Shown here: positions 10,910 to 26,324 of the stretch, in pieces
Layout of the letters: the number at the start of each line of letters is the position of its first letter
Position numbering within the stretch: position 1 is the stretch's first letter
DNA from: a virus
Reading direction: 5' to 3' (one strand)
Length of the DNA: 26,965 nt
Virus record (IMG/VR): IMGVR_UViG_3300027907_000043
Location: 1-26,965 of that record
Notes under the pieces: model-generated
Told to the model about the DNA's origin: nothing
Databases searched by the model: none
Seen by the model: only the letters and a program-made list of their open reading frames with translations
Translations under genes and position numbers: made by a program

Positions 10910-12405
10910 CGCAACGTGCGGCGCGCCTCCATCTTGAGCCGTTCGAACCTGCGCTGATCTGCGCGAGAGAGATCACCTGGCTCCGAGTAGCCGGAAGCAA
11001 CCAGGGCAACCACACGCTCGTCCACACCGGACGCGACAAGCGCGGCCTCGTAACGGGGAACCGGGAACCCAGCGACGGGGACGGATAGCGCGGCGCAAAG
11101 CTCCAAGCGCCCCTTTTCCTCGCGCCAGTCCCCGGAAGGTGGATTGGCTTCCATGTCACGCACGCTTTCGGCAGGGCAGTCAGAACGCACTGCGCCGGAA
11201 AGCCAAATGCCGTACTGCCCATCCTTGGCGCGGACAAAGGCACCGACCGTGCCGGTCTTGTCGTAATGCTCGATCGCGCCCTGCGTACCGAGGTATGGGT
11301 TCACGCTGGCGTGACCTTCTGCACCGACGGTGATGCGACCGACATTGACCTTCTCGCCCTCGTTGGTGGTTAGCGCGCCAGTGTGGAAGTAGGCGTAGCC
11401 CGACTTTGAACGCGGGGCCATTTCGCAGGTAGCGCCCACGGCACGGTGGCACTGGTTCCACAGCGCCAGGTGGCCATAGACGCGGCCGTCTGTGGTGACC
11501 GTCAGCGGGCAGGGGCCGTTGGTCTCTTCGGTGTAGAACCAGTCCTTCGGCGGCTTCAGGGGTGCAATACCTGCCGCGGATGCGGTCAGCACCTTGCGGA
11601 TCGGGAACGCCGAGGCGACAACAACCTTCTCCGGCGTCTCGATGATCTGCATCGTCGCGTCCTCGAACGCCTGGAACGGGCACAGCGTTGCGCCCATGAT
11701 GTCGCCCTCGTAGCCACGGACGAAGTTGCCCGCGAGTAGATCCATCAGATCCATCTCGCCCTCGTCAACAGCGTCGAGCGTCTCGGGATCAAGCAGATGC
11801 GTTGCGCTGGCCGCGAAGTCGATCGAGACACCGCGCAGGACTTCCTCTCCCAGCAGATCGTGGGCGCGCTGACCGTCCTCGTTGCTCGCGAAGACGCCGC
11901 TGCCCATGATCGCGACTGCCCCATCTCCGAGATCAGGGCGATCCTCATGCCAGATGTTGGTGATCTTGCCTGCCACCCACGCACCCTCATGCCCATCCGC
12001 GGTGACGGTCTGCGCCATTAGCGTCAGTGGCAAATCACGGTGACCGATCTTGCCAGGCATCAGGTAGCGGTTGTCGCTTGTTGTGATGCCCTCGACCGCG
12101 AGCACACCCTCCCACTGTGTTTCCTCGACAGCCGCCTCATCCTCGGTCTCAACAGCAGCTGTCGTGCCGCTATCAGTGAAAGTGATGGTGACCGTGTTGT
12201 CCGAAGTTGTCGTAAATGCGTTGTTGCTTGTTCTGATAGTCGCCATGCTTTCCTCCTCAACAGATGCGGCCTCGCTCGCATATAGCGCCTTCTGATGAGC
12301 GCGGGCCTGTTCCTTGGTGGCATGACAACCACCAGGAACCGGTGACCGTTCGCCAACCTTGACCACGCAATACTTGCTTCCGCGTCTATGGACACGCCAG
12401 GGCAT
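10900..12405 (-). CDS. Prohead (capsid maturation) protease, S78-like, with extra N- and C-terminal domains
   Basis: A 501-residue protein whose ATG overlaps the portal stop (TGATG). Residues 1-45 form a small domain seen at the N-terminus of other phage head proteins (YCVVKV, then GGCHATKEQARAHQKALYA). The protease core spans about 97-255: GHEGAWVAGKI supplies the probable catalytic H139 and VLRGVSIDF the probable nucleophile S194, matching the H and (G)(L/V)S-I motifs of HK97 prohead proteases. About 240 further residues contain cysteine-bearing segments (NQCHRAVGATCEMAP) and a GLY-rich beta region of unknown role. Substrates are likely the capsid N-terminal domain. An internal start at 12246 with its own GAGGAGGAAAGC site could give a shorter form. 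Confidence 0.75.
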   Translation of the reverse strand: MPWRVHRRGSKYCVVKVGERSPVPGGCHATKEQARAHQKALYASEAASVEEESMATIRTSNNAFTTTSDNTVTITFTDSGTTAAVETEDEAAVEETQWEGVLAVEGITTSDNRYLMPGKIGHRDLPLTLMAQTVTADGHEGAWVAGKITNIWHEDRPDLGDGAVAIMGSGVFASNEDGQRAHDLLGEEVLRGVSIDFAASATHLLDPETLDAVDEGEMDLMDLLAGNFVRGYEGDIMGATLCPFQAFEDATMQIIETPEKVVVASAFPIRKVLTASAAGIAPLKPPKDWFYTEETNGPCPLTVTTDGRVYGHLALWNQCHRAVGATCEMAPRSKSGYAYFHTGALTTNEGEKVNVGRITVGAEGHASVNPYLGTQGAIEHYDKTGTVGAFVRAKDGQYGIWLSGAVRSDCPAESVRDMEANPPSGDWREEKGRLELCAALSVPVAGFPVPRYEAALVASGVDERVVALVASGYSEPGDLSRADQRRFERLKMEARRTLRCS

Positions 12406-14195
12406 CAATGGCTCCCGTTCGCGTCCTTGGATCGTTCAAGATGGGTCGCGAATCCGACCGGTAGCTGCGGCAGCCGCTCGTCGTAGAGCGTGCGTGCCGC
12501 AAACGACTCGATCATCTCGCAGATCGCGTCTGCCTGCTTTGGTGTGAAGTCCCAGTAGACGAGCATGTCCTTGAAAGTGTCCGTCCCACCCCGGACGAGA
12601 CGCAACGGCTCCCAGCCGAGCTTCTCGACAACACCGGGGCCAACGATCGATGCGACCAGCGCATGCGGCTGTCCGTTAGCTCGGTCGAAGCAGTCAGGAC
12701 AGCTGCGATGCTTTTGGTACAGCCTGATCCCGGCAAGCTCTCGACAGCGGGCCAGCGCCATCATCGCCGCACCCATCGCTTCGTAAGATTCCGCCGATGA
12801 GGTGACGACACGGGTCTGACGACCCGAGTCTCCCTCCGGACCAGGCGTAGCTGGTCCATCAAGAGCCGGGTCACGTCCATTGATGGAGGGCTGCTGCTGC
12901 GGCCTAGGCTGCTGACGGTTGCGGCCCTGGATTTCCAACCACCACTTCTCGTCCTCGTCGTCGGGCGCCCAATCCTCGGGAATGTTCTTCATCAGCCGGT
13001 AACCCTCACGGCTAACAACGCCATACTTCGCGGCGTCGTCGGCGTCGTCGGAGCGGTCAGGCTTGACCACAACCGCCGAGGCGTCATAGTCGACCACAAC
13101 AGAAGCCCAGTCCTCGTAACCCGCATCACGCAGCGCAGGCTGTAGATAGGCGGCACCGAGTTCGTCGCAGAACTGTTCCGCGACCGGCGCGCCATGAGAC
13201 TTCCACATGTCGCCGAGGATCTGCATCGAGGCCCAATGGTTCGTGTTGCCAAGCCCCTTTAGCGCCTCCGGCGGCATATCCATGCCATAGGCGAGGCGAT
13301 CGATCGCCTCCTTGCGCAGATCGCGCTCCATGTAGTCGTTCGCGGTGTCATGAATCTGGATGTACTTGATCTTCTCGATGTACTCGCCCATCACCCAGGA
13401 CACGAGCGGGGCACGACCGGCTGGAGTGTCCGGCTCCTCGATCGCCTTGACCATGTTGTCGAGGAAATCCTCAGACCATGGGTCCATGTACACGTCCTCG
13501 TCGCCACCAGCCTCAGCAGGCGGCGGGGCGATCTCAGTCGGCAGAAACAGCAGACCGTTGGTTAGGCGCGATGTTGCGGTTGCGCGCACCGACTTGGTCA
13601 GCAGAATCAGCTCTTCTGCGATCTCCAGCGCCGCCTGCATCGGAGACTCAGCGTCGTACGAACGCTCCGGACTTGGTGTCCACATGCGGTACAGCACGGC
13701 TTCGTCGCCGCTGTACTCACGGGTCGTTGACCCGGATAGCTTGTGGATGATCTTCTTGACGCTGCCATCCGTGTTGGTCTCGACGTCAATCTCGCCGTTC
13801 CACACGAACGACCAGCGCTCACGTTCTTGCCCTAGGTCTCTGCCGAAAAGTAGGCCCTCGCCTGTGATGAACATCAGGCGTCCGTAGTTCCAAAGCAGCT
13901 GCGACTTGCCGCCACCTGGATCACGGATCCGATTTAGTAGATCAACCGGAAGTCCTGTTTTTATCTCTTTCTTCTGCTCCTGTGAATCAATCACAGAGGG
14001 GAAGATGCGCAACGGCTTGAGCATTCGCGCATAAAAACGCGACGCAAATCCCAGCTCAGGCACAAGCTTTGAAACCGCAAGCGCCTGTTGCTGCCAGGGC
14101 AGCTTGTTGCGCTTCGTGTAATCAGAGTCGCGACCGCCTACACGGTAGGCAGACGCGACAAGATTGCGTCCAGGACGCCGATTCGGCAGAGCCAT
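12405..14195 (-). CDS. Portal protein
   Basis: A 596-residue protein of the actinophage portal type, forming the dodecameric head vertex through which DNA is packaged. Typical segments are WQQQALAVSKLVPELGFASRFYARML near the N-terminus (a charged helix), the wing and stem region with VMGEYIEKIKYIQIHD, and the well-conserved GLGNTNHWASMQI near residue 310. A Pro/Gln-rich linker around 430-470 joins a C-terminal extension containing CPDC and FDRANGQPHALV. The gene lies 8 bases after a 23-residue ORF and overlaps the protease gene, so portal and protease are translationally coupled. Length fits the family. Confidence 0.85.
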   Translation of the reverse strand: MALPNRRPGRNLVASAYRVGGRDSDYTKRNKLPWQQQALAVSKLVPELGFASRFYARMLKPLRIFPSVIDSQEQKKEIKTGLPVDLLNRIRDPGGGKSQLLWNYGRLMFITGEGLLFGRDLGQERERWSFVWNGEIDVETNTDGSVKKIIHKLSGSTTREYSGDEAVLYRMWTPSPERSYDAESPMQAALEIAEELILLTKSVRATATSRLTNGLLFLPTEIAPPPAEAGGDEDVYMDPWSEDFLDNMVKAIEEPDTPAGRAPLVSWVMGEYIEKIKYIQIHDTANDYMERDLRKEAIDRLAYGMDMPPEALKGLGNTNHWASMQILGDMWKSHGAPVAEQFCDELGAAYLQPALRDAGYEDWASVVVDYDASAVVVKPDRSDDADDAAKYGVVSREGYRLMKNIPEDWAPDDEDEKWWLEIQGRNRQQPRPQQQPSINGRDPALDGPATPGPEGDSGRQTRVVTSSAESYEAMGAAMMALARCRELAGIRLYQKHRSCPDCFDRANGQPHALVASIVGPGVVEKLGWEPLRLVRGGTDTFKDMLVYWDFTPKQADAICEMIESFAARTLYDERLPQLPVGFATHLERSKDANGSH

Positions 14196-14203
14196 CTAAA
14201 CGC

Positions 14204-14275
14204 CTACTGCTTGCCTTCGGGAGGCTGCTTCGGCGTCTGCTTGGGGATCTTCCCCTTCTTACAACCGCATCCCAC
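14204..14275 (-). CDS. Micro-protein with CGC motif, upstream of portal
   Basis: A 23-residue frame starting at GTG behind AAAGGAG and ending 8 bases before the portal ATG: it begins MGCGCKKGKIPKQ and ends PPEGKQ. The GCGCKK start and the Lys/Pro/Gln tail resemble tiny proteins I associate with positions next to head genes in some actinophages. The two cysteines could bind metal or be lipidated, but no such evidence exists here. The good ribosome binding site and spacing support translation. Confidence 0.5.
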   Translation of the reverse strand: MGCGCKKGKIPKQTPKQPPEGKQ

Positions 14276-14286
14276 GTCTAATCACT

Positions 14287-14300
14287 CCTTTGCGCAAAGG
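14287..14300. promoter_or_regulatory. 14-bp perfect palindrome overlapping a ribosome binding site
   Basis: CCTTTGC followed by its exact complement GCAAAGG. On the minus strand its right half is part of the AAAGGAG site of the 23-residue ORF. In RNA it can fold into a 5-bp hairpin with loop GCGC that hides the site; in DNA it could be a repressor operator. Either would control the portal operon. Confidence 0.35.
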
Positions 14301-14316
14301 AACATTCTTCGCGCTG

Positions 14317-14322
14317 AGTGTA
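14317..14322 (-). promoter_or_regulatory. Possible -10 box for the portal operon
   Basis: TACACT on the minus strand fits the TANNNT consensus, lies after the Ro60 terminator and 40 bases before the first start codon of the portal operon. No good -35 hexamer is visible at 16-18 bases, so this is weak. Confidence 0.25.
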
Positions 14323-14350
14323 GAGCGGAACTAGGTCATTACGCAGAAAA

Positions 14351-14405
14351 CGCTAGGGCACTGGCTTGAGCAAGGGAGGCCCAGGAAGGTGCCAGTGCCC
14401 TAACG
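14351..14405 (-). terminator. Rho-independent terminator of the Ro60 operon
   Basis: Two 15-base arms (minus strand CGTTAGGGCACTGGC and GCCAGTGCCCTAGCG, one G-U type mismatch) flank a 25-base loop and are followed by TTTT. It starts 9 bases after the Ro60 stop and separates this operon from the portal operon. The loop is long for a terminator and contains CTTCCTGGGCCTCCC, which can fold further. Confidence 0.8.
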
Positions 14406-14414
14406 TTGGACAGT

Positions 14415-16001
14415 CTAGAGCTTGCCAGCGAGGAAGTCGCTGATCAAGTTCGGCGTCGCTGTGTCGAAACCAACCACGTCAAACATGCCCGGATCGGTCG
14501 GATCAGCGACCTTCGTGCTGTACGCAACCATCGCGACCGTTGCGCAGCGCGCGTTGAGTCCGCTCTTCTCGCGGTACTCCACCAGCGCCTGTGCCGGGTG
14601 GTAACGGTTACCCGCCCACGTCTGATGGTCTGTGTAGATCACAAAGCCCTCGAACTGCTTGTTCTTCTTGATCGCGTACTCCATCGGCAGCGAGCAGTCC
14701 GTTCCGCCACCGGTGTGCGGGAACGAATTGAGCGCGTCGTCGAGCCGCTGGCGAGCCGAGATGCCAGCACCATAGACCGCCGTATCGAAGCCGATCACCT
14801 CGACGTCCGGCTCAACGTTGAGCGTGATCAGCGCCATCGCGACACCCGCCTCACGCGGCGACAGCGGGGCGCCCTGGATGCCGTAACCCATGCCCATCAT
14901 CGAGCCGGATACATCGACCGCCAGAAGCAGCTTCTTGTTGATCGGCTTGACGTTGCCGAACGACGTGTAGAACGCCGCGTCGAGCGCATCGGTGATCTTC
15001 GGCTTCGGCACCCACTCCTTGCCGCGCGACTGGTAGCCCTGTCCGGACGCGTATGTCCGCAGCGCAAACAGCACCGACATCGGGTGGATACGCGACTTGC
15101 TGATGTACTCGCCGTCAGCGAGCTGATCGAGGACGATCTTCAGCAGCGCCGTGTCCTCCAGCGTGCCGTTGCGCGTCATCGTTGCCAGGTTGCGGATCAG
15201 CGCCGTCATCGGCATGCCCGTCTCCAGCAGCGCGCCCCAAACCTCTGTCGAGTTGAGATGCTCAGTGTTGAGCGCCTCACGCGGCAGCCGGTACTCACGG
15301 ACAAGCTCAGCCGTTCGCGCCGGAGTCGTCGCACTCTGCGCGGCCTCGAATGCAGCCAGCAGCTGCGGTGCCTGCTCCTGTGTGACGCCATGCGCGATCC
15401 AGTCATAAACAGCCGCGTTGTCGGAGTACTTCGGATGCGCAAGGCGCAGCAGGTCGCGGTGCGACCAACCATCACGCTGGCGGTACTTGATCGCCTGGTA
15501 CGCAAGCTGATCTGGGTTTCGCTCATACCAATTCGTGACAGCCCAGCGCATCGTGCGGCCCCAGCCACGCATCGTCTCCGCGTAAGCGACAAACGAGTAC
15601 AGGTGTGTGCCGATACGCGCCACCTTCGGCAGCGCCTCAGCCGCGGCTCGCTTCGTGGCCTTGTCGCCGTGCGAGATCGCGTACGCCAGCGCGTACAGCG
15701 CCTGGTCGTTCTTCGGCGCGCGTCCCTCGTCCGAGATCATCACGATCTCGTTGACAGTCTTGACGCCGTCCTCAGTGACGCACTTGCCGAGCGCCGTGAT
15801 GTTCTGCTTCGTCAGGTCGCGCTCGCCAACGTAGTACGAGCCGCCTTCGGTGCCGAGCACCAGGAAACGACGCAGCTGCGCCCACTTGTCGAGCTGCCAG
15901 CCGTAGCCGCCAGCCTCGTTCTCAACCTGGGTGTCACGCATCGGCTCCGACTGCGGAGTCCGGCGGGTGCCGCCATGCGACAGCAAATGCTGCTTGGCCA
16001 T
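14415..16001 (-). CDS. rsr: Ro60 ortholog (TROVE domain plus VWA domain), Y RNA-binding ring protein
   Basis: A 528-residue Ro60 protein, the family length. I set the start at ATG 16001 because AAGGAGGT lies six bases before it; an upstream in-frame ATG at 16076 lies inside Y RNA 7. The TROVE HEAT-repeat ring spans about 25-350, with the family signatures LDKWAQLRRFLVLGTEGG, SYYVGE and GRTMRWAV, and WYERNPDQLAYQAIKYRQRDG. The VWA domain (about 357-528) has an intact MIDAS metal site: D363-x-S365-x-S367, T434 and D458. Ro60 rings bind Y RNAs on their outer face and the ends of misfolded RNA in the central hole; bacterial forms tether PNPase. Seven Y RNA genes lie directly upstream. The gene ends at a strong terminator. 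Confidence 0.93.
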   Translation of the reverse strand: MAKQHLLSHGGTRRTPQSEPMRDTQVENEAGGYGWQLDKWAQLRRFLVLGTEGGSYYVGERDLTKQNITALGKCVTEDGVKTVNEIVMISDEGRAPKNDQALYALAYAISHGDKATKRAAAEALPKVARIGTHLYSFVAYAETMRGWGRTMRWAVTNWYERNPDQLAYQAIKYRQRDGWSHRDLLRLAHPKYSDNAAVYDWIAHGVTQEQAPQLLAAFEAAQSATTPARTAELVREYRLPREALNTEHLNSTEVWGALLETGMPMTALIRNLATMTRNGTLEDTALLKIVLDQLADGEYISKSRIHPMSVLFALRTYASGQGYQSRGKEWVPKPKITDALDAAFYTSFGNVKPINKKLLLAVDVSGSMMGMGYGIQGAPLSPREAGVAMALITLNVEPDVEVIGFDTAVYGAGISARQRLDDALNSFPHTGGGTDCSLPMEYAIKKNKQFEGFVIYTDHQTWAGNRYHPAQALVEYREKSGLNARCATVAMVAYSTKVADPTDPGMFDVVGFDTATPNLISDFLAGKL

Positions 16002-16034
16002 GCTGATACCTCCTTGGCAAGAGACGCACTTATG

Positions 16035-16147
16035 TCCACCGGACATGGTGTGGGAGTCGGGTAGCCCGGGCATCACGGGCGTGCCCTGTGGCTGGCGTCT
16101 CCACCAGCTTGGCGTAGATAACCGACCGACCCTTCGGCCCAGGTGGA
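16035..16147 (-). ncRNA. Y RNA 7 (in the 5' leader of the Ro60 gene)
   Basis: About 113 nt. The terminal helix is TCCACC-(T)-GGGC paired with GTCCGGTGGA, with the one-base T bulge seen in all seven copies. The signature reads TGGGCCGAAGG, then CGGTTATC, and the 3' strand has CACACCATGTCC. The distal part has two hairpins, GCTGG/CCAGC and GGGCA/TGCCC, but no TTCRA T-loop and no D-arm, so the tRNA likeness is degenerate. It ends 19 bases before the Ro60 ribosome binding site, and a promoter-like pair is placed to start transcription at its 5' end. It may act both as an ncRNA and as a cis element through which Ro60 regulates itself. Confidence 0.8.
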
Positions 16148-16153
16148 TCTAAG

Positions 16154-16181
16154 ATGATACAGAACTGCACCCGAAAATCAA
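16154..16181 (-). promoter_or_regulatory. Candidate promoter for Y RNA 7 and Ro60
   Basis: On the minus strand TTGATT (16181-16176) and TATCAT (16159-16154) are 16 bases apart, in the 54-base gap between Y RNA 6 and Y RNA 7. The expected start, 5-7 bases downstream, falls at 16149-16147, exactly the 5' end of the Y RNA 7 helix. Confidence 0.55.
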
Positions 16182-16201
16182 GAGTTTGATTTGCAGGTAT
16201 T

Positions 16202-16360
16202 TCGCGGCGGATGTGGTGTGGGAATCGGCGTTAGGTACCCATCAGATGGTTCTGGTGGGAACCATCTTGCGACACCTTGTCGCCCACCGCCCGTGGAACG
16301 GGCGGTATTGGAATCGAACCAATCAACGAGATAACCGATGACCCTCCGACCCAACCGCGA
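16202..16360 (-). ncRNA. Y RNA 6, with permuted tRNA-like module
   Basis: About 159 nt, the longest copy. The terminal helix TCGCGG-(T)-TGGGT pairs over 11 positions with ATCCGCCGCGA, and ATCGG pairs with CCGAT as the second helix. The signature is TGGGTCGGAGG, then CGGTTATC, with 3' CACACCACATCC. The distal module, in order, is: T-arm ATTGG-TTCGATT-CCAAT; acceptor-like 8-bp stem ACCGCCCG/CGGGCGGT closed by TTCCA; D-arm-like GCGAC-AAGGT-GTCGC with a GG in the loop; then an 8-bp hairpin AGATGGTT/AACCATCT. This is the order of a tRNA whose ends have been joined and whose chain is opened elsewhere, as known for YrlA-type Y RNAs. Confidence 0.85.
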
Positions 16361-16379
16361 GCGTGAGAAGCTACCAGAA

Positions 16380-16500
16380 GCGAGGGGCGTGGTATGAGGA
16401 ACGGTCTCGTCTGACTGCTCAGACGTGCTGGGCTTGAACCAGCTCCCAAGGGCAAACCTTGGTTTGTACCGATAACCGTCGACCTCTTCGGCCCACTCGC
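16380..16500 (-). ncRNA. Y RNA 5, with T-arm and acceptor-like stem
   Basis: About 121 nt. The terminal helix GCGAG-(T)-GGGC pairs perfectly with GCCCCTCGC; GACGGT pairs with ACCGTT as the second helix. The signature is TGGGCCGAAGAGG, then CGGTTATC, with 3' ATACCACGCCC. The distal part has CCAAGG-TTTGC-CCTTGG, a T-arm GCTGG-TTCAAGC-CCAGC, and a perfect 7-bp acceptor-like stem CGTCTGA/TCAGACG closed by GCAG. No D-arm is present, so this is a reduced permuted tRNA mimic. Confidence 0.85.
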
Positions 16501-16516
16501 GAAGAATGTAGCAAGG

Positions 16517-16653
16517 GAGAGGGGGGCGTGGTGTGCGCTTGGGCCGTGAAGGGCTGGAATCGAACCAGCGTCCTCGGCCCTCTAAGCCGATGCTCTACCT
16601 CTGAGCTACCCCGCCAATTAGCGGATAACCCAACCGCTTCGGCCCACCCTCTC
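16517..16653 (-). ncRNA. Y RNA 4, with linear tRNA-like module
   Basis: About 137 nt. The terminal helix GAGAGGG-(T)-GGGC pairs perfectly with GCCCCCCTCTC; GCG and TTGGG pair with CCCAA and CGC. The signature is TGGGCCGAAG, then GGTTATC, with 3' CACACCACGCCC. The insert reads in normal tRNA order: GGCGGGG, TA, D-arm GCTC-AGAGGTA-GAGC, anticodon arm TCGGC-TTAGAGG-GCCGA (anticodon AGA), GGAC, T-arm GCTGG-TTCGATT-CCAGC, CCTTCAC. The acceptor pairs only weakly (about four pairs) and continues into the Y stem. A tRNA finder may call this a serine tRNA, but its ends are embedded in the Y RNA. Confidence 0.85.
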
Positions 16654-16689
16654 TTTGTGCGCCTCTTGCCTGAGGCGTCGTCAGTCTAG

Positions 16690-16758
16690 TTGCTGGGCGT
16701 GAGTTTGGCTACGGATCAGGTTTCGAGTCTGATAACCCGAAGCCTCCGGCCCAAGCAA
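16690..16758 (-). ncRNA. Y RNA 3, minimal form
   Basis: About 69 nt. The terminal helix TTGCT-(T)-GGGC pairs perfectly with GCCCAGCAA; GGCT and CGG pair with AGCC and CCG as the second helix. The signature is TGGGCCGGAGG, then GGTTATC, with 3' AACTCACGCCC. The distal end is a small hairpin ATCAG/CTGAT with a nine-base loop. There is no tRNA-like module. A 6-bp hairpin (CGCCTC/GAGGCG) without a T tract follows in the spacer to Y RNA 4. Confidence 0.8.
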
Positions 16759-16766
16759 GTTCAAAA

Positions 16767-16839
16767 GGTCCCGGGCATGTGATCCGCTCCTGGACTTTTA
16801 TCTCCCATAGATAACCCAGGTGCGTCCGGCCCAAGGAAC
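16767..16839 (-). ncRNA. Y RNA 2, minimal form
   Basis: About 73 nt. The terminal helix TTCCT-(T)-GGGC pairs with GCCCGGGA with wobble pairs, and CCTGG pairs with CCAGG as the second helix. The signature is TGGGCCGGA, then GGGTTATC, with 3' ATCACATGCCC. The distal end is only a loop, with no tRNA-like module. CCTTTTG follows its 3' end. Six bases separate it from Y RNA 1. Confidence 0.75.
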
Positions 16840-16845
16840 AAAAGG

Positions 16846-16980
16846 GCGGCGGGCGTGGTGTGAAGATCGGTGTTTTAGCGCTCTACCACTGAGCTACGTC
16901 ACCTTGACGGTGACGGCTGGATTTGAACCAGCGACCTCTCTCTTATCAGGAGATAACCGATACCTCTCCGGCCCAACCGC
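16846..16980 (-). ncRNA. Y RNA 1, with permuted tRNA-like module
   Basis: About 135 nt. The terminal helix GCGGT-(T)-GGGC pairs with GCCCGCCGC; ATCGGT pairs with ACCGAT as the second helix. The signature is TGGGCCGGAGAGG, then CGGTTATC, with 3' CACACCACGCCC. The distal module has, in order: a possible anticodon arm TCTC-CTGATAA-GAGA (loop identical to that of a GAT isoleucine tRNA), AGGTC, T-arm GCTGG-TTCAAAT-CCAGC, a perfect 7-bp acceptor CGTCACC/GGTGACG closed by GTCAA, TA, and D-arm GCTC-AGTGGTA-GAGC. All four tRNA arms may be present in permuted order. TTATC could instead pair with GATAA, which would remove the anticodon arm. A T4 run follows. Confidence 0.87.
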
Positions 16981-16991
16981 TCAAGAGCCTA

Positions 16992-17186
16992 TCAGGCGAT
17001 GACCTTCGGTGGGCGTCCGCGTCGCTTCACAGGGCGCCCGCCCAGCTCATCAGCCTCTGAGTCTGTGACGTCAAGAACACGCACACCCTTCTTCGCGTCG
17101 TAGAACTTGATTGTCACTGACGCACCAGTGCCAGACGGAATTTCCTGTCCGGAACGATCGCTTACAAAGACTTCCTTCTTAGCCAT
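16992..17186 (-). CDS. Small basic protein with Lsr2-like start and AT-hook-like tail
   Basis: A 64-residue protein with AAAGGAGGTGCA before its ATG. It begins MAKKEVFVSDRSG and has a beta-type segment (GASVTIKFYDAKKGVRVLDV) comparable to the N-terminal dimerisation domain of Lsr2-like proteins. Its C-terminus, KRRGRPPK, resembles an AT-hook. Such small proteins may bind AT-rich DNA or act as anti-silencers, and they are known in actinophages. It is the first gene of the candidate Y RNA/Ro60 transcript and ends 11 bases before Y RNA 1. The Lsr2 similarity is weak; the basic tail could equally bind RNA. Confidence 0.6.
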   Translation of the reverse strand: MAKKEVFVSDRSGQEIPSGTGASVTIKFYDAKKGVRVLDVTDSEADELGGRPVKRRGRPPKVIA

Positions 17187-17190
17187 TGCA

Positions 17191-17215
17191 CCTCCTTTCC
17201 TCAGAGGAGATTATA
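17191..17215 (-). promoter_or_regulatory. Candidate promoter (-10 TATAAT) and SD-hairpin for the Y RNA/Ro60 operon
   Basis: A consensus TATAAT (17215-17210) overlaps the TAA stop of the dehydrogenase gene, 24 bases before the next ATG. No good -35 is visible at 16-18 bases. In the short leader CTCCT can pair with AGGAG across eight bases, hiding the ribosome binding site of the 64-residue gene. This is the best-placed start for transcription of the Y RNA array. Confidence 0.45.
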
Positions 17216-18284
17216 CGTCTACAACGTGATCTGTGTGTGTGAACGTGATGTCACGTTCTTCCAAGATGTTTGCAAGAAGTGTTGCTGGAGAACCGACAGT
17301 AAGAGCGGTCTCTGGCTTGTATGCCTTGCCCATGATTTCGACCTTGTGCAAGCCGTGGGCGTTGACTTCTTCTTGGATCAGATCGGCGAGCCACTCTGTC
17401 TGCTTTTCTCGGCAGACCATAAGGGCCTCAAACAAATCAAAGGAAAGGTTGGTCTCACGGGCAAGCCAAGAGAGCGCGATGTTGTCTCGCGGATGACAGC
17501 CGCCGCCGTCACCCATACCACCGCGTAGATAGGCGGGAGACAGAAGGCGACGGTCGGCCAGAGAAAGGGCATCAACGAGATCATCAACATCGGCCCCCGT
17601 CTTTTCGCACAGCTCCATCATCGCATTCGCGAAGGCGATCTTCATGCCAATGAACGTGTTGTAGGCAACCTTTGTCAGCTCAGCCGTCCTGATCGTGGTG
17701 ACGAACACGGGCCGGTCGTGGATGGTGGCGTAAAAGTCGCGGAGGATGCCGGGGTGGGCGCCGTCGGTTCCGACCAGCACGAACTCTGGGTCGCGGAAGT
17801 CGGGGATGGTGGTTCCCATCGCGATGAAGAACGGGTTGTACAGCAGACGGTCAGGCGTGATTGCGATGTCCGGGTCGTCGAAGATTTCGCGCTGCATCGT
17901 TCCGGGCAGCACCGTTGAGATGACGACGATCGGGCACTGGGCTTCTTCGACCGACGCGAGCGCATCCCAGAGATGCCCGTAGTCGAAGTCGGCGCGTTCG
18001 TCCGGGAGCCTGGTGGTGCCCTCGAACTCAGGCTGATGCGGCGTTTGCACCGCCACGAAGATCAGATCAGCCCACTCCGAGAGAACATGCGGCCGCTTGA
18101 AATGGATCTTTGTTGTTTCAAGCAGCTCCTGGGCGTCCGCTTCGACGTACGGCAGCTCACGGCTGTCGATCGTGTTCATCACCTGTTCGGAAATGTCCCA
18201 GCCGCAGACCTCGTGGCCCGCGGCTTCCACGGCAAGCGCGACAGGAAGTCCCAGCTTACCGAGGCCGATGAAGCCAACCTTCAT
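17211..18284 (-). CDS. UDP-glucose/GDP-mannose dehydrogenase family protein
   Basis: A 357-residue NAD-dependent nucleotide-sugar dehydrogenase, which oxidises the C6 alcohol of a nucleotide sugar to the uronic acid in two steps. The Rossmann motif is GFIGLGKLGLP (G4-x2-G7-x-G9), with D30 as the probable ribose-binding acid. The catalytic region includes E202, K205, N209 in the ELTKVAYNTFIGMKIAFANAM segment and the nucleophile C263 in GDGGGCHPRDN. The C-terminal UDP-binding domain is shorter than in cellular enzymes (usually about 430 residues). It overlaps the 23-residue ORF (ATGA) and ends the sugar-related block. It may supply a uronic sugar for the nearby glycosyltransferases. Confidence 0.85.
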   Translation of the reverse strand: MKVGFIGLGKLGLPVALAVEAAGHEVCGWDISEQVMNTIDSRELPYVEADAQELLETTKIHFKRPHVLSEWADLIFVAVQTPHQPEFEGTTRLPDERADFDYGHLWDALASVEEAQCPIVVISTVLPGTMQREIFDDPDIAITPDRLLYNPFFIAMGTTIPDFRDPEFVLVGTDGAHPGILRDFYATIHDRPVFVTTIRTAELTKVAYNTFIGMKIAFANAMMELCEKTGADVDDLVDALSLADRRLLSPAYLRGGMGDGGGCHPRDNIALSWLARETNLSFDLFEALMVCREKQTEWLADLIQEEVNAHGLHKVEIMGKAYKPETALTVGSPATLLANILEERDITFTHTDHVVDV

Positions 18285-18352
18285 AGTCTCTTGGCGATGT
18301 AGATGATCCCCAGGATGATCAGCACAATGACGAGAATCTCAACCAAGGTCAC
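18281..18352 (-). CDS. 23-residue single-pass membrane micro-protein
   Basis: A very short frame linked on both sides by four-base overlaps: its GTG overlaps the previous stop (GTGA) and its TGA overlaps the dehydrogenase start (ATGA). The product, starting MTLVEILVIVLIILG and ending IIYIAKRL, is one hydrophobic helix with a positive C-terminus. The exact double overlap strongly suggests it is translated. It could be a small inner-membrane protein such as a holin-like or regulatory peptide; the function is unknown. Confidence 0.6.
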   Translation of the reverse strand: MTLVEILVIVLIILGIIYIAKRL

Positions 18353-18588
18353 TCGATCCCCCATTTCTCCATCAGCGGGCCAAGATCAATGTCGTGGCCC
18401 GGCATCTCGGAAATGTCTTCGAGCGCAGCCCCATAACCGATCATCCAAACTGCGCAGCAGATGCGTTCAAGCTCTGGGCCGTCCATGTTGATCTCGTCGA
18501 GTGAGAATCCCTTTCTAATCACATCGTCTACTGCGGCAAGGCGTCCTGAGACTTCGGACATCACTCTCGGGACCATGTTCTCCATCAC
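18349..18588 (-). CDS. Hypothetical protein
   Basis: A 79-residue acidic, helical protein with GTG start overlapping the previous stop (GTGA). It contains VSGRLAAVDDVIRKGFSLDEIN and ICCAVWMIGYGAALEDISEMP; the adjacent cysteines and central hydrophobic helix may form a dimer interface. No family is recognised. It is cotranscribed with the surrounding small genes and the dehydrogenase. Confidence 0.55.
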   Translation of the reverse strand: MMENMVPRVMSEVSGRLAAVDDVIRKGFSLDEINMDGPELERICCAVWMIGYGAALEDISEMPGHDIDLGPLMEKWGIE

Positions 18589-18791
18589 GAAGGTGGCAGG
18601 ATCAACCTGCGCTCAACGGTCATCAGGATCTTCCCCTCTTCCAGCGTGCGATAAAACACGCGGCGCGCAAACCGCTTCTCGCCACGCCTAATTTCGTCCA
18701 TCACGTACTGGGTCGAGTCCGCGCCGCGTGAGACGGCGGTGATGATCTCTTTCTCCAGACGAGTGTCTTGCTTGGACTTGGTGGTGCCCAT
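18585..18791 (-). CDS. Hypothetical protein
   Basis: A 68-residue basic helical protein with AAAGGAGA before its ATG. The sequence LEKEIITAVSRGADSTQYVMDEIR then ARRVFYRTLEEGKILMTVERRLIL is compatible with a small helix-turn-helix domain: two helices, a turn, then a helix and a beta-wing-like end. A winged-helix regulator is therefore possible. No closer family can be named. Confidence 0.5.
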   Translation of the reverse strand: MGTTKSKQDTRLEKEIITAVSRGADSTQYVMDEIRRGEKRFARRVFYRTLEEGKILMTVERRLILPPS

Positions 18792-18806
18792 GTTGTTCTC
18801 CTTTTC

Positions 18807-19172
18807 TTACTCGGGCTTGTTGAAGTGCTGCCACTCCTCGTCGCTCCAGCTGCCGCCACCGATTCCGATGTCAAAACCGCCACCGAACACGTAGCCAACA
18901 AGCGTGCCGATCTGGCCGTGCAGGTCAAACCAGGTCAATTGGGCGTAGCCGGGACCGCCGGAGGCTGTCGAGACCTGCAGCGCGCAGGAACCATCGATGT
19001 GGCTGAGGCCAGGGAAGTCGCCAGAGAAGTTCGTGCCATAGCCAACCTGTGGTGTGCCGATCTCACCGATGTAGCCCTTGAAGTGGTACTGGTGGCCATC
19101 AGCGGTGGTGATGTCCGCAACCACGCCAGCGAACCCATATCCACCGAATGTCACGCTTCCTGTCGCTTCCAC
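18807..19172 (-). CDS. Glycine-rich beta protein, possible Vap-like or lipocalin-like barrel
   Basis: A 121-residue protein with AGGAGGAGAT before a GTG start. It is rich in Gly, Phe and Tyr in alternating strands: GSVTFGGYGFAGVVADI, HQYHFKGYIGEIGTP, YAQLTWFDLHGQIGT and GYVFGGGFDIGIGGGSW. The strand pattern and the Gly-rich end recall small eight-stranded barrels such as VapA of Rhodococcus, but without a signal peptide. It has a single Cys. The similarity is visual and weak. It sits between a methyltransferase and small helical proteins; the function is unknown. Confidence 0.5.
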   Translation of the reverse strand: MEATGSVTFGGYGFAGVVADITTADGHQYHFKGYIGEIGTPQVGYGTNFSGDFPGLSHIDGSCALQVSTASGGPGYAQLTWFDLHGQIGTLVGYVFGGGFDIGIGGGSWSDEEWQHFNKPE

Positions 19173-19180
19173 ATCTCCTC

Positions 19181-19936
19181 CTAGCGTTTGACGAGCACTG
19201 CTCCGATGTACTCACCGTGCTCGGTGAGCGGTTCGCAGGTTTTTACCTGGAATAGCTCTCCAAATCTCTCTTCAATTCGATCTTGGTTATACCAATCGGC
19301 GTATCCTCCGTGTGGGTCCCAATGTGTCCAGTAGCGCTCGAACAGCTCGGAGTCCTGCACCGGCATGTTGATGGGCGGGGTGCCCGTCGCGATCTCCCAC
19401 GCCTTGTCCGAGTAGAGCATCAGACGCAGCTCTCCCTTGGCGCGTAGCCATGCCGCCATCTGCGTGACGACAGGGATCGGGTTGGGTATGTGGTGCAGGA
19501 CGCCACAGCAGTGGATCACATCGAACGCAAGATCTTCTTTCTGAATAAAAGGAGGAAATTCGTAGATAAGGTACCGGTGTTCTGCCTCGTAACCGCTTGC
19601 CTGTAATACCTTGCTTGCTAATTCTACATTATGTGGTGCAATATCTGCGATCGATACACGGTTACCCAGCTTGGCGTACTGGAGCGCCTCTAAGCCGACA
19701 CCGCAGCCGTAGTCGAGCACATCCTTGCCCCGTGTGGTGTCGAGGCCGAGCACGATCCGCCAGCGCATCTGGAAGTTTCTCCAGCCGCCGTAGCGCGCCT
19801 CCGCCATTCTCCCGATCACATCGTTGAGCGTCTGCTCGTCCCAGCTCAGCATCTCCTTGGCCGGGAAGTAGCCAATGTCATCGACAGGAGGAGACGACCA
19901 CGATCTGCGGCGCTCGGAGAAGGGCGGGATGCCCAC
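19181..19936 (-). CDS. Class I SAM-dependent methyltransferase
   Basis: A 251-residue protein starting at GTG that overlaps the previous stop (TAGTG). Motif I is VLDYGCGVG (residues 73-81), with the acidic ribose-binding residue in RVSIADIAPHN and motif IV-like CCGVLHHIPNP at about 143-152. This is the layout of small-molecule and sugar methyltransferases (Methyltransf_11/UbiE-like), not DNA methyltransferases, which carry NPPY/DPPY. In its context of glycosyltransferases it probably methylates a sugar of a phage or host-surface glycan. The C-terminal part (WDPHGGYADWYNQDRIEE) may bind the acceptor. Confidence 0.75.
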   Translation of the reverse strand: MGIPPFSERRRSWSSPPVDDIGYFPAKEMLSWDEQTLNDVIGRMAEARYGGWRNFQMRWRIVLGLDTTRGKDVLDYGCGVGLEALQYAKLGNRVSIADIAPHNVELASKVLQASGYEAEHRYLIYEFPPFIQKEDLAFDVIHCCGVLHHIPNPIPVVTQMAAWLRAKGELRLMLYSDKAWEIATGTPPINMPVQDSELFERYWTHWDPHGGYADWYNQDRIEERFGELFQVKTCEPLTEHGEYIGAVLVKR

Positions 19937-20154
19937 TACTCAGCTGTTTCCCAATAATCAGGCGGAATCGGCTGCGCGATAGAGCTTTCCCCGAGCGGCA
20001 GGTTGGGTGGGAGCACTGCCGCGACACCAGTCGGGTCACCACCGCCTTGCGAGAGCAGACTGCGCAGGATTTGAAGCTCCTGCGGGTTCATCTCAAGGAT
20101 CCATTTGGCGATCCGCTGGATCGGCGCGTGCGGGTCATGGGGGTCTTCGCTCAT
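19936..20154 (-). CDS. Hypothetical protein
   Basis: A 72-residue protein whose ATG overlaps the upstream stop (ATGA). It is acidic and proline-rich: PIQRIAKWILEMNPQELQILRSLL forms a likely helix and the C-terminal half (VLPPNLPLGESSIAQPIPPDYWE) is extended. No family is recognised. The form suggests an adaptor or a small scaffold between the two enzymes encoded on either side. Confidence 0.55.
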   Translation of the reverse strand: MSEDPHDPHAPIQRIAKWILEMNPQELQILRSLLSQGGGDPTGVAAVLPPNLPLGESSIAQPIPPDYWETAE

Positions 20155-20969
20155 GCCATTGCCGCCCGCAGCTTGGCCACGTCGTTGGCGCGATCCTGTC
20201 GTGTGCGCTTGTAGAGATCCACAACCCCGTCCTTCAGTCCTCGCTCCTCACGCTCAGCGTGAGTTTGATCACGTTCGGCTTTTCCGAACGTGTAGTGGTG
20301 ATGTTCGGTGACAAAGTCCAGCAATCTGTGTCTGCCAACCTCTTTTGCTACTTCGTTCAGCCACACGTCGTTCCAATCGGAAGAAAACAGCGGTGGCACA
20401 AAGTATCCCACTGCATCGACCCAACGTCTATGCAGGAAGCCATGTGTGCCGAACGTTTCTCCATGCGGGCCAAGGTCGTTGCCATAGGCGAAGAGGATCT
20501 TGTCCGGTGTTTCCGCGAACGCACGACGCACCTGTGCGTCCCAGCCGGGTGTGTCGAACGTGAGGTCGTCCCCGCAGTGCATCATGATCGGGCCGCGGGC
20601 CTTTGCTGCGCATTCGTTCCAGCATGCTGACAGCAAGGCCCGTGGCCCTACTAGGTACTCGACACCCACGAACGAGGGATAGGCGTCGAGACGAGGGTCG
20701 TCCTCGTCGAGACGGACGATGAACTCGATCCGACGCTCATGGGTTGCTGTTTTGAAGGCACTGACGATCGTCCTTGTCAGCCACTCAGGGCGCCCCCGTG
20801 AGGGGACGAGGATCGAGATCAGTTCGGGCTTGTTTTCACCGATCCTTCTGATCTCGATGTCTGTCTGATCGGGGATATAGCGCCACGGGTCAATCACGGT
20901 GCTGCCTGGCACAAAATCCGTCTCTGTGTACTGCGCGTGCTTGGTGGCGATGAAGTACAGCTTGCTCAC
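20151..20969 (-). CDS. Glycosyltransferase (GT-A/GT2-like)
   Basis: A 272-residue protein. I chose the GTG at 20969, which overlaps the peptidase stop (GTGA) behind GGTGGA; a GTG at 20993 would overlap more. The first about 50 residues form an extra N-terminal segment with DPWRYIPDQTDIEIRRIG. The GT-A core starts at ISILVPSRGRPEWL, followed by RLDEDDPR and MMHCGDDLTFDTPGWD, where GDD is the likely metal/nucleotide-sugar site. The C-terminal FVTEHHHY and positively charged tail are typical for phage enzymes of this type. Donor and acceptor sugars are unknown. Confidence 0.7.
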   Translation of the reverse strand: MSKLYFIATKHAQYTETDFVPGSTVIDPWRYIPDQTDIEIRRIGENKPELISILVPSRGRPEWLTRTIVSAFKTATHERRIEFIVRLDEDDPRLDAYPSFVGVEYLVGPRALLSACWNECAAKARGPIMMHCGDDLTFDTPGWDAQVRRAFAETPDKILFAYGNDLGPHGETFGTHGFLHRRWVDAVGYFVPPLFSSDWNDVWLNEVAKEVGRHRLLDFVTEHHHYTFGKAERDQTHAEREERGLKDGVVDLYKRTRQDRANDVAKLRAAMA

Positions 20970-21787
20970 AATGGCAGTTCCACCGAGGCCCACGCCTCAC
21001 CGTACGCCTGGAAAAGGACCGTCCAATCAGCAATTTTCATCTTGAAAGAGCCATTTAGACCGAAACCGCTCCCCCAGGAGTTCTTGAATAGCAGCGTGTC
21101 ACCCTGAACCCCGTAAAGCAAGTAGCAATGTCCACCAGCATTGAGTCCGGTTGGCTTGACATATCCGTTCGCATCCGGATCGAACATGTCGTACGTCCAG
21201 TCGGTGCCAACAACCAGCGGCCCCTTCTGACGTAGCCAGGAGAGCACGTCGGCCATCGTGTTCGCAGCGGCATAGGTGGTCAGGCGGGTGCGGGCCTTCA
21301 TTGCCTTCGCGCCGTCGCGCGGATACGCCCCGTCCTCACCCTGTGGGTCACCTTCGATCACTTTGCACTCGTAGTAGATCGCGTGTCCGTCGCTATCCAC
21401 ATAGGTGTTCTCGATCGGCTCTGCGTCGCTCCAACCAGCCCAACCGAAGCCAACACAGTGGCCAGTTTCGCCCTGATCAAGCTGGAAATCGGTGATATCC
21501 CAAACCTTGTCCTGCGTTGGTGGCGGTAGCGGCCCGAGGATGATCTGGGAAAGCGCGTTGAATGCCCTCCACCAATGGGTCACCGTGACGTCTGTGTACT
21601 GGCGTGAGGCCCACTGCTTGTAGGTGATTGTCGTCTTCTTCAGCTCGTCGGTCGCAAACTGTGCCAGCGCCTGTGGGGTGCCCGCGGTGACGAGGCTGCC
21701 GATTGCCTGGAAGTTAGCGAGGCGAAAATCACGTAAATCCGGCGGTGAGGGCTTGCGTCCAAGCAGTTGTGGGGAAGGTTCAGCCAT
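20966..21787 (-). CDS. Papain-like (C1A-type) cysteine peptidase
   Basis: A 273-residue protein with AAAGGAGTAAAT before the chosen ATG; an upstream in-frame ATG at 21829 lacks such a site. The papain signatures are all present in order: Q105 (oxyanion hole) and C111 (nucleophile) in DQGETGHCVGFG, H220 in NAGGHCYLLYGV, and N236 in LFKNSWGSGFG. The first about 95 residues form a pro-segment-like or virion-binding domain starting with KPSPPDLRDFRL, a stretch reminiscent of other bacterial C1 peptidases. There is no signal peptide. It lies among glycosyltransferase genes. It could process virion proteins or act on host proteins; which one is not evident. Confidence 0.8.
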   Translation of the reverse strand: MAEPSPQLLGRKPSPPDLRDFRLANFQAIGSLVTAGTPQALAQFATDELKKTTITYKQWASRQYTDVTVTHWWRAFNALSQIILGPLPPPTQDKVWDITDFQLDQGETGHCVGFGWAGWSDAEPIENTYVDSDGHAIYYECKVIEGDPQGEDGAYPRDGAKAMKARTRLTTYAAANTMADVLSWLRQKGPLVVGTDWTYDMFDPDANGYVKPTGLNAGGHCYLLYGVQGDTLLFKNSWGSGFGLNGSFKMKIADWTVLFQAYGEAWASVELPL

Positions 21788-21789
21788 AT

Positions 21790-22428
21790 TTACTCCTTTG
21801 CAGGCGGCGTAATGCCGCGCAGCTGCCATGTGCGTTGGTAGTACGGGTCATCTGGATCTTCGCGCGAGAGGCTGACGATGCTTGCCTTCTGCACCCGTGT
21901 CCAGCGATATCCCATCTCGATAACAGCGGGTGAGAAGAGCGAGTCTTCTGTCCAGCCCGGCGGGTAGCGCTCACCCCATGGCCGCTCGTCGTAGCGCAGC
22001 CCCTGGTCCCACAACGCGCGACGGATCACGTTGTTGCCGCCGACGTTGCTCAAAGCGCCCATTTCCTCTCTGCTCGTTCGCAAACCGACCTGTCCGACGT
22101 GAACATCTTTGAATCGGACGAGAAATGCCTCGCACCAGCCGGGCAAATACGAGAAATCGTTGTCGGAGCGGTGCAGAAAGGTTGTCTCGGCTGGCATTGT
22201 CTCCCAGCCGCGGTTGCAGGCAAAACCGGGGAAGCGGTTCTGTTCCAGCAGGATCACGTGGTCATAAGGTGAGACTTGATCCAACAGCCAGTCCTGCGTT
22301 TCCTCGTCAGAGGCGTTGTCCACGATCACCAGCGTGTGCGGGACGGAGACCGTCTCCTTGTAGGAGTGGTAGCACTGCTTGAGCAGTTCAAGCCGATTGA
22401 AGGAAATGATGGCGCTATGGAGATGCAT
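21790..22428 (-). CDS. Glycosyltransferase (GT2 family)
   Basis: A 212-residue protein with GGAG eleven bases before its ATG, overlapping the previous gene by 14 bases. It has the GT2 layout: AIISFNRLELLKQC at the start, LVIVDNASDEET as the first nucleotide-binding acid, NRFPGFACNRGWE, then RSDNDFSYLPGWCE with the DxD-like SDND. WTEDSLFSPAVIEMGYRW supplies the acidic (general base) ED motif. It probably adds a sugar to a phage or cell-surface acceptor. Confidence 0.8.
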   Translation of the reverse strand: MHLHSAIISFNRLELLKQCYHSYKETVSVPHTLVIVDNASDEETQDWLLDQVSPYDHVILLEQNRFPGFACNRGWETMPAETTFLHRSDNDFSYLPGWCEAFLVRFKDVHVGQVGLRTSREEMGALSNVGGNNVIRRALWDQGLRYDERPWGERYPPGWTEDSLFSPAVIEMGYRWTRVQKASIVSLSREDPDDPYYQRTWQLRGITPPAKE

Positions 22429-23062
22429 TTATCGTCTCCGGGAACAACTCGGCCTGAATCCGCATGTGAGTTTCCACCTGCCACTTACGATCGCGCCACA
22501 TTTTCCGGTGCGCAGACTGTGGATTGATGTGAGCCTTGTAGACCGCCTGTGGTACGGGGAACACCTTGGCTCCTGCTCGCCAGCATTTCGCCCATAGCGA
22601 CCAGTCCTCGAAACCGTGCGGATAGTCGTTGAAGCCACCAACCTCCGTGAAGAGTTTGCGGCGCAGTACCGTGCCGACCACGAGATAGTTGTCTGTACTG
22701 AGATCCTTCTCCGGGATGAGATAGGTCGGCCCAGGGCGCCCCTTGCGGTAGTAACAGACAGCGGGCTGCAAAATCGCTGGCTCGGGACGCTCCATAGAGC
22801 AGATTGCATCTGTCATCGCCCGCACGTAGTCATCACCTAGCTCGTCGTCAGCATCGAGGAACAGCAGCCACTCTCCACTCGCGCGTTGCGCTGCTCGATT
22901 ACGGGCGGGGCCGATCGGCAAGTCCTGCTCGTGGTGAACGATGATCTCGTATGCGTTCTGTTCCTGCGCCGAGGGAAGAGCACGCTGGCTTGCGATCTCG
23001 CGCCAGTGGTCCCCCCCGTAGGTCGTAATGATGATCGAGATCAAATTAGCGTTGCCGCTCAT
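22415..23062 (-). CDS. Glycosyltransferase (GT2 family)
   Basis: A 215-residue protein. The open frame extends upstream to 23254, but the GT2 fold begins right after ATG 23062 (MSGNANLISIIITTYGG), so I chose that start; it overlaps the upstream gene by 17 bases. Further motifs are GPARNRAAQRASGEWLLFLDADDEL with the DxD site and GGFNDYPHGFEDWSLWAKCW with the general-base ED. The C-terminus is helical and basic. This is the most canonical glycosyltransferase of the block. Confidence 0.85.
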   Translation of the reverse strand: MSGNANLISIIITTYGGDHWREIASQRALPSAQEQNAYEIIVHHEQDLPIGPARNRAAQRASGEWLLFLDADDELGDDYVRAMTDAICSMERPEPAILQPAVCYYRKGRPGPTYLIPEKDLSTDNYLVVGTVLRRKLFTEVGGFNDYPHGFEDWSLWAKCWRAGAKVFPVPQAVYKAHINPQSAHRKMWRDRKWQVETHMRIQAELFPETINASP

Positions 23063-23983: not shown

Positions 23984-24010
23984 GGCAGCGAACCATACGG
24001 CCTCGATCGG

Positions 24011-26288: not shown

Positions 26289-26294
26289 GCCGCC

Positions 26295-26324
26295 AGTGTA
26301 GGGCGACGATCGGCTATGTGTCTA
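26295..26324 (-). promoter_or_regulatory. Candidate promoter for leaderless terminase transcript
   Basis: On the minus strand TAGACA (26324-26319) and TACACT (26300-26295) are separated by 18 bases. The expected transcription start is the G of the GTG codon at 26288, seven bases after the -10 box. There is no ribosome binding site before this GTG, as expected for leaderless mRNA, which is common in actinobacteria. Confidence 0.45.

What the first reader, a model, noticed from the sequence alone, without database searches (positions are those of the whole stretch)
16035..16980. Array of seven Y RNA genes upstream of a phage Ro60 gene
Seven minus-strand units share the block TGGGYCGRA, then GGTTATC, close to the metazoan Y RNA core (UGGUCCGA then GUUAUC). 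Each is flanked by a helix whose 3' strand contains a conserved CAC(A)CCACGCCC-like stretch. The terminal helix sequence differs in every copy but remains paired, which is compensatory covariation, and each has the same one-base T bulge. An intact Ro60 gene follows at once. Phage Ro60 and Y RNAs have been reported before, but from what I know typically as one or two Y RNAs per locus; seven in tandem is unusual and suggests several cargo-specific forms of one Ro60 particle.
Basis: partly seen in the sequence, partly recalled or inferred. Interest (0 to 1): 0.92.

Follow-up and report, generated by a model that had tools for sequence, protein, structure and literature searches.

The report
Seven Y RNAs beside phage Ro60
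A phage carries seven small RNA genes in a row, next to the gene of the ring protein they probably bind; each has the same handle but a different head, several of them imitating tRNA in differently rearranged forms.

Summary
Seven minus-strand Y RNA units (16034-16981) end 32 nt before an intact phage Ro60 gene (14415-16001). The Ro60-side stem covaries (34 of 35 terminal-helix pairs in the window; 104 of 110 over 22 units of three phages, shuffles 59±6). A covariance model finds all seven end to end; six were not used to build it. The array is syntenic in two phages with 82%-identical Ro60 (7 and 8 units).

The 'unusual number' claim fails: two or more units occur in 83 of 150 other Ro60 loci, and one phage contig has about 13.

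Unit 1 is a YrlA-type permuted tRNA. Unit 4, called tRNA-Ser(AGA), is a whole tRNA in another permutation (acceptor hairpin, D, anticodon, T arm). The same class recurs in other phages, including isolates Myrna and Phabba, where it is annotated as 'tRNA-Sup' and 'tRNA-Ser'.

Best reading: one Ro60, several RNA adaptors. Binding, expression and partners are untested. New variant of a known kind.

The parts
16844..16981 (-). Y RNA unit 1: Ro60-side stem plus YrlA-type permuted tRNA (T arm 16916-16932, acceptor hairpin 16897-16915, D arm 16880-16894)
   Evidence: model R1 104.8 bits, but this unit was in the model; Rfam YrlA 34.8 bits, partial, gathering 69; orthologs in L003, L004; coordinates
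16768..16839 (-). Y RNA unit 2: short, no tRNA part; no -10 box found upstream
   Evidence: R1 20.5 bits, E 0.0028; orthologs in L003, L004, which R1 misses; fold z -1.5
16689..16759 (-). Y RNA unit 3: short, no tRNA part; ortholog in L004, absent from L003
   Evidence: R1 32.7 bits, E 3.9e-6; fold z -2.65
16517..16652 (-). Y RNA unit 4: stem plus complete tRNA in a different permutation: acceptor hairpin 16611-16624, D arm 16592-16606, anticodon arm 16574-16590 (loop UUAGAGG), T arm 16553-16569
   Evidence: R1 41.7 bits; ARAGORN tRNA-Ser(aga) 16545-16614; Rfam tRNA 48.0 bits; same order in L003, L091 and others; coordinates
16379..16501 (-). Y RNA unit 5: hairpin, T arm, second hairpin; no D arm
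   Evidence: R1 32.8 bits; fold z -4.06; orthologs
16202..16360 (-). Y RNA unit 7 (numbering by orthology): T arm, acceptor-like hairpin, D-like hairpin, extra hairpin of variable length
   Evidence: R1 39.2 bits; orthologs in L003, L004, where the predicted folds do not show the inner Y helix
16034..16148 (-). Y RNA unit 8: stem plus hairpins without T-loop; 32 nt lie between it and the Ro60 start codon
   Evidence: R1 27.8 bits; orthologs; the L003 ortholog has a T-loop
14415..16001 (-). Ro60 (TROVE and vWA), 528 aa
   Evidence: Pfam; PHROG 850; D. radiodurans Rsr 2nvo 1e-106, human RO60 9nen 1.9e-103
16009..16015 (-). Ribosome-binding site AAGGAGG of Ro60, between unit 8 and the ATG
   Evidence: read from the sequence
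16154..16181 (-). Sigma70-like promoter of unit 8 (TTGATT, 16 nt, TATCAT)
   Evidence: 1 found, shuffles 0.4±0.6; similar boxes in L003 and L004
16986..16991 (-). -10-like box TAGGCT before unit 1
16505..16510 (-). -10-like box TACATT before unit 5
16368..16373 (-). -10-like box TAGCTT before unit 7

Best explanation
The region is a cluster of seven Y RNA genes made to be bound by the phage's own Ro60. Shown by sequence: each RNA has the same Ro60-side stem (bulged terminal helix, GGGYCGR core, inner helix, GGUUAYC), and the stem is held by covariation. Between the strands sits an exchangeable module: a permuted tRNA, a re-permuted whole tRNA, partial tRNAs, or a short loop. Outside units 2-4, most units have their own -10-like box at the stem start. 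Inferred: Ro60 binds every stem, the loops act as different adaptors or gates, and so one Ro60 is brought to several tRNA-handling enzymes or RNA classes of the host (by analogy with Rsr, Y RNA and PNPase in Deinococcus). Unit 8 probably also forms the 5' leader of the Ro60 mRNA.
For: Array confirmed. Same order of orthologous units beside Ro60 in L003 and L004. Orthologous whole units (stem and loop together) show compensatory pairs in every group, though unit 3 has only 1. Stems are 82-86% identical between the three phages, modules 52-64% with gaps counted, the Ro60 gene 82%. -10-like box TANNNT in 12 of 22 units (12 of 14 outside units 2-4) against 9.3% in shuffled upstreams. Ro60 residues aligned to human K170, R174 and H187 are invariant in 8 phage Ro60s; their role in RNA binding is recalled. 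At least one Y RNA-like unit on the Ro60 strand in 120 of 150 other Ro60 loci, two or more in 83. Published analogue: Rsr tethered by Y RNA to PNPase in D. radiodurans (passages of PMC7790460 and PMC4726728); three very abundant RNAs upstream of an Rsr-like gene in Listeria phage CKA15, for which the authors offer Y RNAs as one explanation (passages of PMC12282133).
Against: No transcript or binding data for this phage. Rfam YrlA is below its gathering score (34.8 of 69). No RtcB or RNase PH family (PNPase) gene in the 8 phage records searched (most are possibly fragments), so partners would have to be the host's. 10 of 22 units lack the -10-like box. Folds of units 2 and 8 are not better than shuffles on their own, and 4 of 22 single-sequence folds lack the inner Y helix. 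Several ortholog groups also contain broken pairs (4, 6, 0, 9, 6, 0, 3, 7 for units 1-8). Two of three orthologs of unit 8 lack a T-loop.
Confidence: 0.72

Rival explanations
1. Decoys: the tRNA-like loops, above all unit 4 with its free anticodon arm, are bait for host tRNA-cutting or tRNA-modifying enzymes; Ro60 stabilises or delivers the bait.
For: D, anticodon and T arms without a normal acceptor stem in unit 4 and its relatives. The anticodon triplet changes between close relatives: AGA, AGA and (by eye) UUU in the three phages here; Myrna is annotated Sup TTA and Phabba Ser. Hughes et al. raise competitive inhibition of an anticodon nuclease by YrlA as a possibility (passage of PMC7790460).
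Against: I did not search for tRNA-cutting or defence genes. The same paper found YrlA itself uncut. Short units 2 and 3 have no tRNA part. Only 5 of the 9 unit 4-type RNAs have a regular anticodon arm (7-nt loop with U33).
Confidence: 0.15
2. Unit 4 is an ordinary tRNA-Ser gene that happens to lie between two halves of a Y RNA unit; the array has six Y RNAs and one tRNA.
For: ARAGORN and Rfam call it a tRNA.
Against: The flanking halves pair as in the other units. Only 5 of 7 acceptor pairs form in the window and 4 of 7 in L003, two of them G-U in each, and a 5-pair hairpin with changed pairs sits there instead. L004 keeps the Y stem but has lost the T arm. The same composite recurs in other phages.
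Confidence: 0.05
3. The stems serve as cis elements: Ro60 binds unit 8 in its own mRNA leader and the other units mainly buffer Ro60, so the array is a feedback device rather than a set of adaptors.
For: 32 nt lie between unit 8 and the Ro60 ATG in all three phages.
Against: Does not explain why tRNA modules are kept in orthologous units. Unit 8 has its own promoter-like site.
Confidence: 0.08

Closest known systems
Bacterial Y RNA YrlA (Rfam RF02553) and its Ro60/Rsr
   Same: Beside Ro60; same stem core; unit 1 has the same T arm, acceptor hairpin, D arm order.
   Different: Seven units with unlike loops; score below Rfam's threshold; unit 4 uses another permutation and keeps the anticodon arm.
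Y RNAs of actinobacteriophages (Cashline, Bigswole, Sixama, A3Wally, Streptomyces phages)
   Same: R1 gives at least one end-to-end match in each of the 15 named phage records searched, and within 4 kb of Ro60 in the six read closely.
   Different: Ro60 under 60% identical to this one in all 343 matching records; units are often dispersed among tRNA genes; the six records' tables near Ro60 show no Y RNA feature.
Myrna and Phabba unit annotated as tRNA-Sup or tRNA-Ser
   Same: Y core, acceptor hairpin, D, anticodon, T arm, Y 3' arm, as unit 4; both encode Ro60.
   Different: Lies in the tRNA cluster about 37 kb from Ro60; outer helix shorter; Myrna's anticodon loop is not a regular 7-nt one by my test.
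Metazoan Y RNAs
   Same: UGGUCCGA ... GUUAUC core and a bulged lower stem (recalled; the review passage gives a seven-pair helix, bulged C and three-nucleotide bulge).
   Different: No tRNA-like loops (recalled).

Membership tests
Bacterial Y RNA (Ro60-bound) | Encoded beside a Ro60 gene | tested here: met
   32 nt between unit 8 and Ro60 ATG
Bacterial Y RNA (Ro60-bound) | Paired lower stem with conserved core, supported by covariation | tested here: met
   104 of 110 terminal pairs over 22 units, shuffles 59.1±5.8
Bacterial Y RNA (Ro60-bound) | tRNA-like domain in at least one Y RNA of the locus | tested here: met
   unit 1 T-acceptor-D; unit 4
Bacterial Y RNA (Ro60-bound) | RNA is made and is bound by Ro60 | not testable with these tools
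   needs infected cells or purified protein
Rfam RF02553 YrlA as curated | Score at or above gathering (69 bits) | tested here: not met
   best 34.8 bits, partial; units of six named phages also stay below (27-47 bits)
Ro60/TROVE protein | TROVE and Ro60 vWA domains along the whole chain | tested here: met
   DVSGSM motif invariant in 8
Functional tRNA gene (unit 4) | Seven-pair acceptor stem | tested here: not met
   5 of 7 pairs in the window, 4 of 7 in L003, G-U included; outer part can form a separate hairpin
Functional tRNA gene (unit 4) | Anticodon kept between close relatives | tested here: inconclusive
   AGA in window and L003, UUU by eye in L004, whose copy has lost its T arm

The most novel reading that the evidence does not exclude
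Phages of this kind build series of Ro60 adaptors by circularly permuting tRNA in different ways on one constant stem. The unit 4 class displays a whole anticodon arm on Ro60, and some 'suppressor' or odd tRNAs annotated in phages are really such Y RNAs, made to engage enzymes that read or cut the anticodon.
Probability: 0.3. Interest if true: 0.85.

Novelty: new variant of a known kind. Interest (0 to 1): 0.64.

Why it matters
What Y RNAs do for Ro60 is known from few bacteria. A natural series in which only the loop changes lets adaptor function be tested directly, and the second permutation class occurs in isolated mycobacteriophages that grow on M. smegmatis. It also means that some annotated phage tRNAs, including 'suppressors', should be re-read.

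Tried and rejected
Seven as a record number: rejected.

Unit 4 class as unique to this family: one search saw D before T arm in only 2 of 324 units, because L091's copy had been set aside as a partial match; later matched it end to end (23.1 bits). and the pattern scans (33 stretches) found the class elsewhere. By my reading, nine stretches are credible (L011 = window contig, L014, L214, L187, L188, L211, L207, L194, L200); the other 24 look like ordinary tRNA genes or other sequence. The script's own tests did not pass all nine: no T arm for L207, no 3' helix for L188, L194 joined to a later unit, and a regular anticodon arm in only 5 of 9 (L011, L014, L214, L200, L207).

R1 matches covering only about positions 48-105 look like neighbouring tRNA genes (T arm of one, D arm of the next) and were not counted as Y RNAs. 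R1 missed the unit 2 orthologs in L003 and L004. R1 E-values are rough by the tool's own note. One search used a looser limit for viral loci (E 0.05) than for genomes (0.0005); it dropped 10 viral loci as window family or duplicates (judged by me from equal coordinates and scores), nine named partial matches and scan hits over 200 nt. Its 8 for Sixama includes a weak hit at 8470 that I reject.

misread the 3' frame of two units; corrected. The loose detector finds none of the units in four of the six named phages and 1 of 2 in Cashline.

Listeria phage P100: no Ro60 match with P0001 and only partial R1 hits, inconclusive. T4 RNA ligase family: control silent, uninformative. Terminase gives no close named relative (best 37% identity); no near DNA match in phages.

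Key papers not held: Chen 2014 and two reviews. My recollection that Chen 2014 reported Y RNAs near Ro60 in over 250 bacterial and phage species, at least one per species tRNA-like, is from memory. I cannot exclude that arrays or the second permutation are in print.

Full report
Source and setting. The window is a 26,965-base virus record with terminase, portal and head-maturation genes, so a tailed phage. No near DNA relative of window 12000-26965 was found in 50,697 phage records. Its Ro60 matches 343 of those records, all under 60% identity. Three IMG/VR contigs carry close relatives: L002 (5 mismatches in 11,584 bases), L003 and L004 (82% Ro60 identity).

The observation. All seven units are there. 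Each starts with a terminal helix, a T that folds leave unpaired, GGGYCGR, an inner helix and GGTTATC; each ends with the matching strands. Terminal pairs form in 34 of 35 cells in the window, and only 2 of 5040 re-pairings do as well. Over the 22 units of three phages it is 104 of 110 against 59.1±5.8 in shuffles (one search gave 103 with two misread frames). Six of seven terminal helices differ; units 1 and 7 share theirs. Fold z-scores are -3.66, -1.51, -2.65, -2.82, -4.06, -2.62 and -1.71 in array order; the sixth was computed on a shortened piece. Single-sequence folds show the Y stem in all seven window units, but lack its inner helix in L3_7, L4_3, L4_6 and L4_7.

Conservation. L003 has units 1, 2, 4-8 and L004 has 1-8 in the same place, between a small gene and Ro60. 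RNAalifold on orthologous whole units shows 9, 4, 1, 7, 6, 3, 4 and 4 compensatory pairs for units 1 to 8, with 4, 6, 0, 9, 6, 0, 3 and 7 pairs broken in at least one sequence; units 3 and 6 rest on two sequences. Stems are as conserved as the Ro60 gene or slightly more; modules are less.

The loops. Unit 1 has T arm, acceptor hairpin, D arm, the YrlA order; Rfam YrlA matches it at 34.8 bits, below the curated 69. Aligning 22 such units from phages and bacteria gave 34 pairs, 23 with changes on both sides. The model R1 made from them finds the seven window units with E from 6e-23 (unit 1, in the model) to 0.0028 (unit 2). Units 2 and 3 are short. Units 5 and 7 hold a T arm and hairpins. Unit 8 holds hairpins, with a T-loop only in L003.

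Unit 4. ARAGORN and Rfam call a tRNA-Ser(AGA) here. It lies inside a Y RNA unit. Its acceptor stem would have 5 of 7 pairs in the window and 4 of 7 in L003. In its place a hairpin of its own can form just before the D arm (window CCGCU/GGCGG, L003 CCAGC/GCUGG, L004 AUCGUCC/GGACGAU), followed by D, anticodon and T arms; L004 has lost the T arm. This is a second circular permutation, with the anticodon arm kept. It recurs in L091 (Rfam tRNA positions 6-65) and, after two pattern scans, in the contigs of L047, L076 and L093, in L207, and in Myrna and Phabba. Of the nine, five have a regular anticodon arm by my test. In the Myrna record this RNA is annotated 'tRNA Sup TTA' and in Phabba tRNA-Ser. 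In ScoobyDoobyDoo the syntenic gene is 'tRNA-Sup(cta)'; my pattern did not match there, but by eye the same layout is present with GGTTCTC for GGTTATC. All three encode Ro60.

How usual are arrays. R1 and the scan were run on 80 of 429 viral relatives (the 80 that the tool kept; 70 after dropping this family and duplicates) and on 80 of 116 bacterial or MAG ones. Counts per locus: viral 0:17, 1:16, 2:14, 3:13, 4:5, 5:2, 6:1, 7:2; genomes 0:13, 1:21, 2:29, 3:7, 4:6, 5:2, 6:2. L091, counted as 7, has about 13 units on reading, so some counts are too low; a few weak matches may be false. Of 83 loci with two or more units, 35 hold both a tRNA-bearing and a short unit. So the mixture of loops is a recurrent trait, and this family is at the high end.

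Expression. TANNNT lies 4-14 nt upstream of the stem in 12 of 22 units, against 9.3% in shuffles (binomial 1e-7, which treats orthologs as independent and so overstates). Units 2, 3 and 4 lack it in all phages. One sigma70-like promoter precedes unit 8; no terminator-like site was found in 15990-17250.

Mechanism. Shown: one stem, many loops, one Ro60, synteny. Inferred: Ro60 binds all, loops choose partners. In D. radiodurans Y RNA tethers Rsr to PNPase (passages), and YrlA is modified by DusA and TruB (passage of PMC8394870). The 8 phage records searched, some of them fragments, gave no RtcB or RNase PH family match, so partners would be the host's. A Listeria phage paper reports three very abundant RNAs within 2 kb upstream of an Rsr-like gene, and that protein in purified particles (passages of PMC12282133); the authors name Y RNAs as one of several explanations. 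My own check of the related phage P100 was inconclusive.

Known or new. Phage Ro60 and phage YrlA are known (passages of PMC7824862 and PMC7765460). I found no paper on arrays or on the second permutation in the searches listed under Tried and rejected, but the central paper is not held.

Noticed in passing
L218:690-830 (Mycobacterium phage Myrna 94,663-94,803): 'tRNA Sup TTA' (gene 161, 94,710-94,781) lies inside a Y RNA-like unit; the same place in Phabba is annotated tRNA-Ser and in ScoobyDoobyDoo tRNA-Sup(cta). These annotated tRNAs may not be tRNAs.
   Followed up: partly
L091:3663-5962: About 13 Y RNA units with core GGGTCG...TTATC upstream of Ro60, the largest array seen; includes a unit 4-type whole tRNA with anticodon TGT.
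   Followed up: partly
window 16661-16676: A hairpin GCCTC(A)GGCAAGAGGC precedes unit 4 and is conserved in L003 and L004; possibly a leader of unit 4.
   Followed up: no
window 16992-17186: Small gene (64 aa, AT-hook-like RGRPPK end, Pfam AT_hook below its cut-off) conserved just upstream of the array in L003 and L004.
   Followed up: partly
window 17211-23744: Sugar and surface genes: UDP-glucose dehydrogenase, methyltransferase and glycosyltransferases; also a weak papain-family hit at 20966-21829.
   Followed up: no
L007 (Gordonia phage Sixama) 3669-7151: Seven credible Y RNA units spread among tRNA genes and a tmRNA-like match; none annotated in the record's table there.
   Followed up: partly
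L122, L144, L148, L154 (Methylobacterium): Bacterial Ro60 loci with 4-6 Y RNA-like units, mixed short and tRNA-bearing.
   Followed up: no
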